Below, in pieces: positions 30,070 through 34,769 of a stretch of 64,000 nt of DNA. Source of the DNA: Verrucomicrobiales bacterium (GTDB lineage Bacteria; Verrucomicrobiota; Verrucomicrobiia; Limisphaerales; UBA11358); the NCBI GenBank assembly GCA_028712475.1, contig JAQTQB010000001.1, positions 310,001 through 374,000 on the forward strand, read 5' to 3'. Each line of letters begins with the position of its first letter. The first letter of the stretch is position 1. Below the pieces are notes generated by a model, which saw only the letters and a program-made list of their open reading frames with translations, had not been told where the DNA came from and searched no databases. A program made the position numbers and the translations under genes.

Positions 30070-30911
30070 TGTTCCCTCAAATCTTCCGTCCCAGACGCTG
30101 GACGCCAGTTCCCAGACCCCATCTCACCCATCCAGCGGACTGCGCACGCCCAGCCCCGGCTTCTGCATGACATGCGTGTAAATCTGCGTCGTCGTCACGT
30201 CCTTGTGGCCGAGCAAATCCTGCACCGTGCGGATGTCATAGCCGTTCTCCAGCAGGTGCGTGGCGAAGGAATGGCGAAAAGTATGAGGCGTCACCGTCTT
30301 GCTCACGCCCGCCGCGAGCGCCGCCGCCTTGACCGCCCGCTGCAAATTCACCTCATGCACATGATGCCGCTGCAACCGGACGGTGGGGCCAGACCCGGTG
30401 GGGCGAGACTCCGTCGAGTCGTGACTCACACTTTGCGGATCATTCGCCAGTCCCCTGGCCGGAAACACCCATTGCCAGCCCCACTCCCGGTCCGCATTTT
30501 GATACTTCCGCGCCAAAGCAAACGGCAGCGAAACCCGGCCCAAGCCCGCCGCCAAATCTTTCGCGTGGATCGCCCGCACCCGCTCCAGATGCAGTTGCAG
30601 CGCGGGTTTAAGGCTCTCCGGCAGTATCGTCATCCGGTCCTTGAAACCCTTGCCTTCGTGAATCGTGATTTCGCTCCGCCCGAAATCCACGTCCTTGACG
30701 CGGAGGCGGAGACATTCCAGCAGGCGCATCCCCGTTCCATACAGCAACTGGCAGGTCAATTGATGCTCCGGCGACACCAGCGCCAGCACCCGGCGCACCT
30801 CCTCCTTGGTCAACACCGCCGGCAGCTTCCGCGTGCGCGTTGGCCGCTCGATTTCCCCGATGGCCCCCAATTCCAGGTTCAAAACCTCCCGATACAGGAA
30901 CACCAGCGCAT

Positions 30912-31175
30912 TTACCCCGTGAGATAGCGCCGCAAACGACCCTTGATATATCTCTTACCCCAAGCCGTCTTGAGGTATTTCTCACGTTGCGCGGCATCAC
31001 TCTCGTTCAGGCAACCCTCCCAATAGACAAGCTCCAATGGGACACGCTTCTTCGTTGAGGGAACTTGTCCGCTGTTATGTGCCTGTAACCGCGCCGGCAA
31101 ATTCCTGGTCAGCCCAACATAAAACTGACCATCCTTCTCGGAGCGCAACACATACACATAACAATAGGTGGCCAT
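30912..31175 (-). CDS. GIY-YIG nuclease encoded by the inserted element
   Basis: 87 residues from the ATG at 31175 (a TTG at 31181 is also possible). [32 protein letters not shown] carries the GIY-YIG core: the YVYVL/YVGLT pair, the catalytic Arg in RNLPARL and His/Asn in [18 protein letters not shown] supplies the catalytic Glu. It is the stand-alone, UvrC-N-terminal-like form with no DNA-binding extension. The ORF fills the element almost from repeat to repeat; its last codons YLTG-stop are the terminal inverted repeat itself. All active-site residues look intact. Confidence 0.92.
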
Positions 31176-31195
31176 GTGCAATTATCTCACGGGGT
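30914..31195. mobile_element. 282-bp GIY-YIG mobile element with perfect 13-bp terminal inverted repeats
   Basis: ACCCCGTGAGATA at 30914-30926 and TATCTCACGGGGT at 31183-31195 are exact inverted repeats bounding the inserted DNA in the integron integrase. Flanking host sequence rejoins as ...QAF|NAL... The only cargo is the GIY-YIG gene. No clear target duplication is seen, only a possible single A. No transposase is encoded. Confidence 0.85.
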
Positions 31196-31561
31196 GAACG
31201 CCTGATTCTGCGTGGCCGCCGCCACATTCCTTGCCACCGCCAGATGCGAGAGATACGCCCGCACCTCCGCCGCCTGCATCTCGCGCGGATGCCGCTTCTG
31301 ATGAAACAGGATGAAACCCCTGATCCAGTGCCAGTAGGCCGACTCTGTCCGATGTGAGAAATGCTTGAACCGCATGACCTCATGCACCTGCTCCTGCAGC
31401 TTCAACTTGGGATTCGGCAGAAATTTTTCAAATGTCGGTTTTGGCATTTCAGTAATGACCCGCAGATTTTCAGAAAACGCCTGCTTGACAAGCATAAAAC
31501 CCGGATTTAAGGTCGGAACCAATGAAAGCGATAAACATCAATCCAGTCGCTTAATCTTAAT

Positions 31562-31584: not shown

Positions 31585-31962
31585 ATGAATTCAGGCGCAC
31601 AGTTTATCGAGCAGCTCGGCATCGAGTTCCCGGAGTTGTGTGAGGACATCAAGGAGTATGAGGGCCTTCTTCATGTCCAGATGGGTTCGTTCGCTCGCAT
31701 CACTCAGGCAGCCATTGATGCCGGAGAGTTTGAGACGTTGCGGCGGCAGTTCATGTTTGCAGACCGTTTCTTTCGTGATGCCGCACCGGACCTTGAGAAC
31801 GCATTCTACGTCTCTTATTTGGAGCATTTGGATTTTCGTGGATCGCACGGACAGCGAGCACAGAGCTTCATGTCATCTGCATTGCGCAAGGGTTGGCAGG
31901 ACATCATGGAGTATATGGACGAGTTGTCTCGGAAAGGACAGAGTGACAAGAGGAAGTCATAG
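31585..31962 (+). CDS. Integron cassette ORF 1, unknown function
   Basis: 125 residues beginning 12 bp after the cassette boundary, with its stop codon touching the attC start, the compact layout of a gene cassette. The product (MNSGAQFIEQLGIEFPELCEDIKEYEGLLHVQMGSFARITQAAIDAGEF...) is acidic and mostly helical, containing LRRQFMFADRFFRDAAPDLENAFYVSYLEHLDF. Proteins of this look (DUF7674-like) occur in cassettes, but I cannot confirm the family. There is no signal peptide. Codon usage is less GC-biased than the host genes. Confidence 0.75.
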   Translation: MNSGAQFIEQLGIEFPELCEDIKEYEGLLHVQMGSFARITQAAIDAGEFETLRRQFMFADRFFRDAAPDLENAFYVSYLEHLDFRGSHGQRAQSFMSSALRKGWQDIMEYMDELSRKGQSDKRKS

Positions 31963-32056
31963 GTCGGCTAACCATGCGCTGCAGCGAACGGCGGCGGGCC
32001 GTCGCAGTTGCAGTCGGCGCGCCTCGTGGCCGCCGTCGCTGAGCTTTTGTCGTTGA
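31962..32056. other. attC recombination site of cassette 1
   Basis: Starts GGTCGGCTAACCATGCGCTG. The inner arms AGCGAACGGCGGC and GCCGCCGTCGCT pair perfectly except for one bulged A, the extra-helical base typical of attC. The right core is degenerate (GTTGATA instead of GTTAGCC). Confidence 0.78.
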
Positions 32057-32410
32057 TATGGCTTAATAATGTCAAGCGGACAGTTCTTCTGCTTTCCGAA
32101 AATTCTTTTCATTTTCCGGTTTCCTTCACCACGAACTATTCTGAGTCAGCCGCCGGGACGCCATGACTGCGGTTTCAAGGCTGAGATGCGTGAGTCCACT
32201 CGCCGGCTTGCACCGGGCGAAGTTATCACAGGTCACGGTCCGAGGCGGCGCGTGTCTCCGTCTAGGCTCAAGGATTGCCAGAGGCACCTTTCAACGACGA
32301 ACGAGCGTCACGCCTGACCGGGTCCCGGCCGCTGGTTCAGAACAGGTTCATGGGCGCTGTCATTTCTTTTCTTTTCTATAAGTGGTTTTGGTTTTTCCGT
32401 GCCGGTGCGT
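32057..32410. other. Stretch without recognisable gene
   Basis: About 350 bp between the attC and the first IS110 remnant. The short ORFs here have no coding character. I see no second attC, and no similarity by eye to the left end of the other IS110 copy. Confidence 0.5.
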
Positions 32411-32963
32411 TCAAGGGGTCGCCGCCACGGGTTTGACCTGGCGCGCGATGGCCCAGACAAAACCCGCCAGTTCGCGGGCCAGCGGCCCAGGGCAAAGCCG
32501 CGCGGCCCGGCTTCGTAACAGAATTTCAACGTCGTGCCGGGATGGGCGGCCTGGAGTTTATGGGCGAGTTTGAGCACGTCGTCGTGTTCGCCGCCGATGA
32601 TCCCGTAACGCCGCACCCCGGTTGAACCGGACGGCGCGAGGCTGACCGCGATGGAATCGTTATGCACGTCCAGGCCAATGAACAGGGCCGGGCCTTTCGT
32701 GGGCGCACCGGGGCGTGGCCGCAGGTGGGCGGCGGCCACGCGAGCCGCCGGTTTGAGCCGGGGCGGGCGCGGTGATTTTTGCGGCTGGACAGGCTGGGGT
32801 TGGCGCAGTATGTATGGCTTCATGGTGTTTGCTTTTCGTTTCAGTGTTGTTACGGACGCGAGTCCCACAACGGGTGGCCCGGCGCCGCTCACGCGGCGCA
32901 ACCCACGTTTGCTCCGGAGAGCAGACACCGCTTTCGCTTTCATCGCCAGCCATACTGTCTAGG
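32411..32963 (-). mobile_element. IS110-family element, internally deleted copy A
   Basis: The transposase remnant starts at the ATG 32823 (MKPYILRQPQPVQPQ). It keeps the DEDD/RuvC-like N-terminal domain (ALFIGLDVHNDSIAVSLAPSG, LKFCYEAGPRGFAL) and then, in a shifted frame, a short C-terminal piece GPLARELAGFVWAIARQV to a stop at 32411. The Transposase_20 domain is missing. The 140 bp upstream of the ATG are non-coding and nearly identical in copy B. The right end, CTGTCTAGG, abuts a cassette-like ORF at 32976. Confidence 0.8.
32743..32963. repeat. 221-bp direct repeat, first copy (second at 33971-34191)
   Basis: The two copies are 1228 bp apart and I find a single base difference (ggcgcc versus ggcacc). 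They cover the first transposase codons and the whole non-coding end of the IS110 elements. On the minus-strand RNA this region has the hairpin GCGCCGC-GUGA-GCGGCGC. The one difference turns a G-C pair into G-U, so pairing is kept. Confidence 0.9.
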
Positions 32964-32975
32964 CCGCTTCACACC

Positions 32976-33242
32976 ATGAGCAGTTCCGAACAGATCCCGG
33001 TTTACCGTTACGCGACTCGGTATCTGAACGAGGTCATTCAGTGCACCGAGCCGATGACCGACGAGTTGGCGCAGCGGATTCGTTCCCTGCACCGCGATCA
33101 CGGTCTCGACTACGAGACGCTTCCTGCTCATCTCTGCACTGGCGACACCACTGGCTCTCAGGCATTCGGCGCTGGTAAGATGTTGGTCGAGCTTGCAGCG
33201 TTTCATCTGCACGAGGATTATCGGCGTTGGAGACAGTCATGA
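32976..33242 (+). CDS. Cassette-like ORF 2, unknown function
   Basis: 88 residues (MSSSEQIPVYRYATRYLNEVIQCTEPMTDELAQRIRSLHRDHGLDYETLPAHLC...) starting 12 bp after the end of IS110 copy A. The leader TAGGCCGCTTCACACC closely matches the leader of the 24.6-kb cassette (TAGGCCACTTCACGC), so the ORF most likely entered as a cassette. The stop is followed by CACAACGGCCT, possibly the first bases of its attC, cut off by IS110 copy B. It is helical, without signal peptide. No family recognised. Confidence 0.6.
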   Translation: MSSSEQIPVYRYATRYLNEVIQCTEPMTDELAQRIRSLHRDHGLDYETLPAHLCTGDTTGSQAFGAGKMLVELAAFHLHEDYRRWRQS

Positions 33243-33275
33243 CACAACGGCCTCCTGATAAGCTGATTAGATAAG

Positions 33276-34191
33276 TCACTGGTTTGGGACGAGTTTTAGG
33301 CCGAGGGCGGCGGCGCTGTTGTGGAGGCGGGCGAGTTTCTTACGCTGCATTTTTTCTTCTTCTTTTTTGAATACTTCGGGATCAAATGGCTGGCGATACT
33401 TGAAGAGGTGCCAGAGGATACGTGCCAGTTTGTGCGCCATCGCCGTGATGGCCTTCGGGGTTCCGAGGCGCGCTTTCCAGCGCCGGTAGAGGTCGCCAAA
33501 GTGGTTCTGGGCCCGGTTCAAGGCTTGCGCGGCCAGTCGCAGCGCGGTGGCGGCCCGGCTCTTCACGTCGCGCGTGGAGGAACTCATGATCTTGCCGCCG
33601 GTGATCCGGTTGTCCGGACACAGCCCCAGCCAGTTCCAAAAATGTCTGGCCGTGGGAAACTTGGCGGCAAACTCCGGCCCCAACTCGGCCATCAGCACGA
33701 GCACGGTCGGGGTTTGGAAGCCGGGCACCGCCGTCAGGTCCACGCCCAAGACGCGGTGACATTCTTCCCGCGCGGCGAACTGCGGTTCGTTGCGCCGGGC
33801 TTTTTTATGGGTGGTCTTGGCCGGGGCCGGCGGCGTGAGGGCGAGGCCGGCCCGCGTGTCGAAGCCTTTGAGCAGCGCGGCGATCTCCACGTCACAGTCG
33901 GCAATCAAAGCCTGATGCTGCTGCCACAACGCGCGGGTTTGCCGCAGCGTGAAGAGGTGTTCGGGCCGCCAGCCGCCGGTTTGAGCCGGGGCGGGCGCGG
34001 TGATTTTTGCGGCTGGACAGGCTGGGGTTGGCGCAGTATGTATGGCTTCATGGTGTTTGCTTTTCGTTTCAGTGTTGTTACGGACGCGAGTCCCACAACG
34101 GGTGGCCCGGCACCGCTCACGCGGCGCAACCCACGTTTGCTCCGGAGAGCAGACACCGCTTTCGCTTTCATCGCCAGCCATACTGTCTAGG
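33276..34191 (-). mobile_element. IS110-family element, internally deleted copy B
   Basis: Shares the 221-bp end (33971-34191) and the ATG (34051) with copy A, but after about 25 codons the sequence jumps, in another frame, to the C-terminal half. This includes PEHLFTLRQTRALWQQHQALIADCDVEIAALLKGFD, VLGVDLTAVPGFQTPTVLVLMAELGPEF and FWNWLGLCPDNRITGGKI, the Transposase_20 (IS116/IS110/IS902) domain, ending LGLKLVPNQ. The DEDD domain is lost. Copies A and B therefore keep complementary halves, and neither is functional alone. The right end CTGTCTAGG is followed by ORF 3. Confidence 0.85.
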
Positions 34192-34206: not shown

Positions 34207-34479
34207 ATGAAAAAGCACAGAGTGAAGATTGGGATTTTGATTTCCATACTATCGGTTATTGGCGTGTTGGAGTTTTTTGATCTGCATCCAAGTATTTCGA
34301 TTGGCAAGACCGACATCACGTGGACTGGATTCAGGCACATGAGTAGGTGGACGCGCGGAGAGCAGACCGCGTCCGTCGGAGCTCTTGGTGCTAAGAATGG
34401 CAAGCTCTATCGCAAGTGTTACATGCGTTTTATTGGTCCAATATCTATTTACAGATATGAACAACCTGTGCCCTCTTAA
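34207..34479 (+). CDS. Cassette-like ORF 3, small exported or anchored protein
   Basis: 90 residues (MKKHRVKIGILISILSVIGVLEFFDLHPSISIGKTDITW...) with a basic start and one hydrophobic helix at residues 8-24, so a signal anchor. It begins 15 bp after the end of IS110 copy B, in the same relation as ORF 2 to copy A. AT-rich relative to the chromosome. About 90 bp downstream, CTAACCATGCGC (34569-34580) repeats the start of the cassette 1 attC. No family recognised. Confidence 0.55.
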   Translation: MKKHRVKIGILISILSVIGVLEFFDLHPSISIGKTDITWTGFRHMSRWTRGEQTASVGALGAKNGKLYRKCYMRFIGPISIYRYEQPVPS

Positions 34480-34769
34480 GTAACAAGACGCGCAAGTGAT
34501 TGATATGCAAGTAAAGTCGCCACCCTTGTTTCTTGTGTCATTGCCCCGCCTCGGAGGCGGGTGGAGTGCTAACCATGCGCGAGCCCGTGTGAAAACCATT
34601 TACCGGCGGATGAGTTGAAGACGGGGAGCGGGAAAGTTTGTCTTGGAGGGAAAGTTTTGCCGGAACGGCTTCGTTCGATTCCGCTGGTGAGGGGAGCGAT
34701 CACCACTCTTATCAGGACGGGCTGACCCGCTTTTTTGCGGGCAGGCGTCGCCGCTACGAACAAAAGATT
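34480..34769. other. End of the cassette region: truncated attC and hairpins
   Basis: Contains the perfect hairpin CCCGCCT-cgg-AGGCGGG near 34545, the attC-type start GTGCTAACCATGCGC (34566-34580) without its other half, and CCCGC-TTTTTT-GCGGG near 34727-34742, which could end the MBL gene transcript. No gene seen. Confidence 0.5.

What the first reader, a model, noticed from the sequence alone, without database searches (positions are those of the whole stretch)
32411..34191. Two IS110-family deletion derivatives that share only the non-coding end, a candidate guide (bridge) RNA
Copy A lost the Transposase_20 domain and copy B lost the DEDD domain, yet both keep 221 bp that differ at one position. 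That repeat covers the region upstream of the transposase ATG, where IS110 elements encode their bridge RNA. On the transcribed strand it contains GCGCCGC-GUGA-GCGGCGC, a stem closed by a GNRA loop. The sole difference changes G-C to G-U and keeps the pair. Retention by both defective copies suggests the RNA or end sequence is what is selected or copied.
Basis: partly seen in the sequence, partly recalled or inferred. Interest (0 to 1): 0.75.

Follow-up and report, generated by a model that had tools for sequence, protein, structure and literature searches.

The report
Left end of integron-targeting jumping gene
The repeated 221 bases are the left end of an RNA-guided jumping gene that inserts into integron recombination sites; its likely guide RNA lies at the other end, while lone left ends like these are scattered in front of small genes across a bacterial order, for reasons still unknown.

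Summary
In detail: 32743-32963 and 33971-34191 are identical except at one base. The repeat is the left end (LE) of an IS110-family element whose intact copy lies elsewhere in the genome (contig C7). The element sits in the last core of integron attC sites: GGTCGTT | element | AGGC(C). Every LE copy abuts a different small ORF.

The bridge-RNA reading is half right. The guide RNA is best placed in the right end (RE), 3' of the transposase. Copy A keeps it (32055-~32410); copy B does not. The RE folds well (z -3.4), covaries, and carries guide segments matching both halves of the attC target. Guide and target covary across relatives (permutation p 0.0002-0.003). The LE has conserved hairpins but no target match. 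Copy B is not a sister derivative: its C-terminal domain comes from a different IS110.

Beyond the finding: lone LEs outnumber REs across the order (LE in 39 of 320 genomes, RE in 22). One genome has 26 LEs, no RE and no DEDD transposase. Most lone LEs end about 50 nt inside the old reading frame and sit a median 12 nt before an ORF. Why this ~195-bp module persists or spreads is unexplained.

The parts
30124..30903 (-). C-terminal catalytic part of an integron integrase
   Evidence: TIGR02249 E=1.2e-103, PF00589
31187..31522 (-). N-terminal SAM-like domain of the same integrase, separated from the catalytic part by a GIY-YIG ORF (30912-31181)
   Evidence: PF13495 E=7.8e-24, PF01541 E=9.6e-16
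31585..31962 (+). Gene cassette ORF (DUF7674)
   Evidence: PF24722 E=4.4e-19
31964..32054 (+). attC-like site cut by the element at its last core (...GAGCTTTTGTCGTT | element | AGGCC)
   Evidence: read from sequence; same junction in C7 and C18 copies; folds as imperfect hairpin but only z -1.2 to -1.6
32055..32960 (-). Copy A: internally deleted element with both ends kept
   Evidence: blastn to C7 copy: 97.8% over 450 bp and 95.5% over 485 bp, with about 830 bp missing between them
32136..32346 (-). Predicted bridge/seek RNA in the right end: guide segments GUCGUU (pairs with right target AACGAC) and GCCUAGAC (left target GCCT plus element AGAC)
   Evidence: model R1 hit 223 bits; covariation; z -3.38; guide-target covariation
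32070..32075 (-). TTGACA, conserved near the RE tip; candidate -35 of a promoter formed when RE and LE join in a circle, with CAGTAT at the LE tip as -10
   Evidence: alignment of RE tips; inference
32743..32963 (-). 221-bp repeat, copy A: left end (non-coding 32824-32960) plus start of the transposase frame (ATG at 32823)
32967..33242 (+). Cassette region after copy A, with a small ORF whose ATG lies 17 nt past the LE
   Evidence: sequence; no Pfam match
33246..33966 (-). Copy B, C-terminal part: from a different IS110 element (Transposase_20)
   Evidence: PF02371 E=4.1e-10; 97.5% to L022 over 487 bp, none to C7
33971..34191 (-). 221-bp repeat, copy B: left end fused to the other IS110 (element tip at 34188)
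34209..34479 (+). Cassette ORF after copy B
   Evidence: the ORF listing

Best explanation
The repeat is the left end of an IS110-family, RNA-guided insertion element that targets the last core (GTTAGGC) of attC sites in a Verrucomicrobia integron. The intact copy on C7 encodes a 455-codon frame (probable start at codon 42) with DEDD and Transposase_20 domains. Inferred cycle: RE and LE join in a circle and build a promoter; the transcript covers the structured LE leader, the transposase gene and the RE; a structured RE RNA guides the transposase with two segments, one pairing with AACGAC on the right of the target and one with GCCT on the left. Window copy A is a non-autonomous derivative with both ends and the guide RNA. 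Copy B keeps only the LE, fused to another IS110. Shown: target site, both ends, RE structure, guide-target covariation. Inferred: transcription, circle, mobilisation in trans.
For: Ten genome copies, all followed by a different ORF with ATG 9-33 nt past the LE. C7, A and C18 copies start at ...GTCGTT|GATATGGC (attC end). C7 transposase NF033542 E=3e-67, PF01548 and PF02371. RE: consensus structure with 91.6% cells paired, 10 pairs changed on both sides, 0/500 shuffles. Guide complementarity to own right flank: 139/161 against 128.9 by permutation, p=0.0007; 0.00015 at 9 nt; 0.001-0.003 with one entry per guide-flank combination; e.g. L082 UUUUUCGUU with AACGAAAAA, L100 GACGUU with AACGUC. Copy A and C18 copy 2 share one deletion junction but differ in flanks on both sides.
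Against: No expression data. In C7 itself the match of the RE to its target is only borderline against shuffles when taken alone (0.056-0.075). Some copies sit at sites that fit poorly (L081, L085, L089). No empty attC with the exact core was found in this genome. The LE is also conserved and structured, so a role for LE RNA is not excluded.
Confidence: 0.82

Rival explanations
1. The LE repeat itself is the bridge RNA, as in the IS110/IS621 group.
For: The LE is conserved across the order with a GNRA hairpin and a stem with compensatory changes; IS110-group elements carry the RNA upstream of the gene (PMC11187229, PMC11208160).
Against: No junction-anchored target match in the LE beyond chance; RE has them. 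LE single-sequence fold z -0.59. Guide-target covariation lies in the RE. RE is the longer non-coding end (about 355 versus 144 nt).
Confidence: 0.1
2. Lone left ends persist because they give the promoterless cassette behind them an outward promoter or 5' leader.
For: 77 of 87 LE tips are followed by an ORF within 50 nt (median 12) against 25% at random places. The inner edge of lone LEs lies at a conserved TCGACA-N17-TATGTA pair facing the cassette, 17-nt spacer in 39 distinct copies. LE is kept where RE and transposase are gone.
Against: The site-specific insertion alone explains the ORF position. Promoter scan finds no sigma-70 match in either window copy. Within G085 the conservation is even along the whole unit with no peak at the hexamers. 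Some lone LEs lack the hexamer region.
Confidence: 0.3
3. The lone left end (~195 bp) is itself a mobile unit, moved in trans, with an unrecognised second end about 50 nt inside the old frame.
For: 24 aligned copies in G085 share sharp edges on both sides with unrelated flanks; conservation drops from ~1.2 to ~0.5 bits at the inner edge. 38 of 94 copies end within one 60-nt stretch of a ~1.75-kb element.
Against: No RE-like tip, no attC half beside the inner edge, no DEDD transposase left in G085. The linker beyond the edge is variable even in complete copies, which blurs the edge.
Confidence: 0.3
4. Both window copies are simple decay products of IS insertions with no further meaning.
For: Many breakpoints, chimera B, several truncated copies.
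Against: Order-wide excess of LE over RE and clustering of inner edges.
Confidence: 0.35

Closest known systems
IS1111-attC group (ISKpn4, ISPst6, ISPa25, ISPa21)
   Same: Insert at one end of attC sites in one orientation; long non-coding region downstream of the transposase; guide order top-strand match first, then bottom-strand match; 7-bp left and 3-bp right tips (PMC11187229, PMC11616780)
   Different: Inverted repeats here only 6-7 bp ((T)ATGGCT) instead of 11-13; transposase longer (about 414-455 aa against 330-350); LE is also long and structured; host order in Verrucomicrobia; lone LEs abound
IS110 group / IS621 bridge-RNA system
   Same: DEDD plus Transposase_20 recombinase; structured RNA with two target-pairing segments; probable junction promoter
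   Different: Guide RNA predicted in the RE, not the LE; reversed order of guide segments
Solo ends / MITEs of bacterial IS
   Same: Non-autonomous remnants repeated in a genome
   Different: Only one end is kept, with a recurrent inner edge; I found no described case for IS110

Membership tests
IS110 family (broad) | DEDD domain and Transposase_20 domain in the intact copy | tested here: met
   C7 ORF: PF01548, PF02371, NF033542 227 bits, cut-off 140
IS110 family (broad) | Site- and orientation-specific insertion without target duplication | tested here: met
   GGCCT / AACGACC halves abut the tips with no duplicated bases; inferred from filled sites, no empty site found
IS1111 group | Subterminal inverted repeats of 11-13 bp | tested here: not met
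   only (T)ATGGCT, 6-7 bp
IS1111 group | 7-bp left and 3-bp right extensions outside the repeats | tested here: met
   AGACAGT|ATGGCT ... AGCCAT|ATC
IS1111 group | Longer non-coding region downstream of the transposase, top-strand guide 5' of bottom-strand guide | tested here: met
   RE about 355 nt; GUCGUU before GCCUAGAC
IS1111 group | Transposase related to IS1111 over its whole length (330-350 aa) | tested here: inconclusive
   length 414-455 aa fits the IS110 subgroup; no IS1111 reference set to build a tree
IS1111-attC elements | Insertion in attC of gene cassettes | tested here: met
   C7, A, C18 and relatives L084, L087, L104 at attC-type flanks AACGACC(C)AAGCT
Bridge/seek RNA | RNA bound to the transposase and required for movement | not testable with these tools
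   needs RNA and transposition assays
Integron | Integron integrase next to attC-flanked cassettes | tested here: met
   TIGR02249 though the gene is split; attC-like sites by sequence, fold only weakly better than shuffles

The most novel reading that the evidence does not exclude
The ~195-bp left end of an RNA-guided attC-targeting element has become an independent module in Verrucomicrobia integrons, either mobile by itself or kept as a leader/promoter in front of cassettes, and outlives the element in genomes without any DEDD transposase.
Probability: 0.4. Interest if true: 0.72.

Novelty: new variant of a known kind. Interest (0 to 1): 0.55.

Why it matters
It gives a natural set of RNA-guided elements aimed at integrons in which guide and target change together, in a phylum where neither is well studied. 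If the lone left ends are a cassette leader or a one-ended mobile unit, they would show how RNA-guided elements reshape gene-cassette arrays and how promoterless cassettes gain expression.

Tried and rejected
LE as guide RNA: rejected for lack of target match and weak fold. Rfam match: none. Sigma-70 consensus in the window copies: none. Copy B as a deletion of the same element: rejected, different IS110. Deletion endpoints at random: unlikely in view of the clustering, but the variable linker limits precision. The right repeat 34568-34754 as the partner end of the LE: rejected, no similarity to RE and only 5 copies. Empty attC with exact core in this genome: not found.

Full report
Observation. 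The repeat is exactly as stated: 221 bp, 32743-32963 and 33971-34191, one difference at 32884. The named stem and the pair-preserving change are real. The genome (3.4 Mb, 29 contigs) holds ten copies.

What the repeat belongs to. One copy, on contig C7 (L017), is part of a complete element: a 455-codon frame with DEDD and Transposase_20 domains, a non-coding left end of 144 nt and a right end of about 355 nt. Close full or partial relatives occur in other Verrucomicrobia MAGs, and more distant ones (about 40-55% aa identity) in rhizobia, beta-proteobacteria, Bacillus and others.

Where it inserts. The left side of copies C7, A and C18 reads ...GAGCTT(T)..GTCGTT and the element follows; the right side reads ...ATACTGTCT and then AGGC(C). 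Put together this is GTCGTTAGGC, the last core of attC sites. The window carries an integron integrase (split by a GIY-YIG ORF) directly before the array. All ten copies are followed by a different ORF within 9-33 nt; across the order 77 of 87 LE tips are followed by an ORF with its ATG at a median of 12 nt, against 25% at random places.

Copies A and B. A keeps 450 bp of the right end and 485 bp of the left end with ~830 bp missing between. The copy C18-2 has the same junction, with different attC and different cassette; no long direct repeat at the junction would favour independent origin. So this derivative was probably mobilised as such, unless both flanks were exchanged by recombination. 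B joins the left end to the C-terminal half of another IS110 (97.5% to L022; no blastn match to C7).

Which end holds the guide RNA. The tips follow the IS1111 layout: 7 bp outside the left repeat, 3 bp outside the right one, longer non-coding region downstream. In that group the RNA lies downstream and the top-strand match precedes the bottom-strand match (PMC11187229). The RE contains GUCGUU followed by GCCUAGAC on the two sides of a stem-closed loop. Six relatives give a structure with 44 pairs, 91.6% of cells paired, 10 pairs changed on both sides, none of 500 shuffles as good. The window copy folds with z -3.38. A covariance model of it found 28 copies in 22 of 320 genomes of the order. 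In 23 of these loci the guide was compared with the element's own right flank: matches exceed permuted pairings (p 0.0007 over 7 nt, 0.00015 over 9 nt; 0.001-0.003 after collapsing equal combinations). L082 (UUUUUCGUU with AACGAAAAA) and L100 (GACGUU with AACGUC) are clear cases of joint change. The first four bases (AACG) hardly vary, so the signal rests on a modest number of loci.

What the left end does. It is conserved too: GNRA-capped hairpin of varying length, an outer stem with two compensated pairs (98% of cells paired) and a segment GGUGUCUGC complementary to the bases just before the start codon (9 pairs, 83% of cells). The support against shuffles is moderate (8/500). I read it as a structured leader of the transposase message that can close over the start region. 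TTGACA near the RE tip and CAGTAT at the LE tip would form a promoter in the circle (inference).

Lone left ends. An LE model finds it in 39 of 320 genomes, mostly without RE. In G085 there are 26 LEs, no RE at E<=1 and no DEDD domain. Many of them stand one per cassette in arrays spaced 0.6-1 kb. Of 94 copies compared, 38 lose similarity between 180 and 239 nt from the tip, about 50 nt inside the frame, right after MKTYILRxPxxVEPQ. In G085 conservation is even along the unit and falls off sharply on both sides. Inner edges that lie earlier or later also exist. The linker beyond is variable even in complete elements, so the edge is less exact than it looks, and the LE search cannot see copies that lost the LE.

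Why they remain is open. A promoter facing the cassette would explain retention (TCGACA-N17-TATGTA), but standard scans find none and the hexamers are not more conserved than the rest in G085. Movement in trans of the short unit is possible but no second tip is seen. Plain decay is the remaining choice.

Literature. attC-targeting IS1111 elements and their seekRNA are known (PMC11187229, PMC11616780, PMC11208160). I found no account of lone left ends in integrons, within an open-access library only.

Noticed in passing
window 30124-31522: The integron integrase is in two pieces with a GIY-YIG nuclease ORF (30912-31181) between them, which suggests an insertion into the integrase gene.
   Followed up: partly
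window 34568-34754: A second ~187-bp repeat starts at the cassette's GCTAAC core and recurs at C9:91, C18:35919, C17:335417 and partly C10:91.
   Followed up: partly
window 33246-33290 and L022 4170-4230: The other IS110 ends at CTCCTGATAAGCTGAT, apparently in the first core of attC (compare CCTGATAAGCTAAC in L016), so a second IS110 type may target the opposite end of attC.
   Followed up: no
L022 2900-4240: That other IS110 C-terminus is fused in frame to what looks like part of a different (DDE-type) transposase.
   Followed up: no
L106 (G000:C14:39078-39288): An RE copy without a detected LE in the same genome, at a site AACGAAAAAAGCTGAGCCAC that its guide fits poorly but the guide of G016 (L082) fits well.
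   Followed up: partly
L139, L157 (G145): Three lone LEs share a further 40 codons ending in KCPGCGQTMRLIGSVARKPP and a stop, then diverge.
   Followed up: no
L186-L191 (G056), L181-L182 (G280): A second subfamily has the frame start MNKTVHYIGLDVHKET in place of MKTYILRxPxxVEPQ and also occurs as lone LEs; the N-terminal extension looks like a decayed copy of that start.
   Followed up: partly
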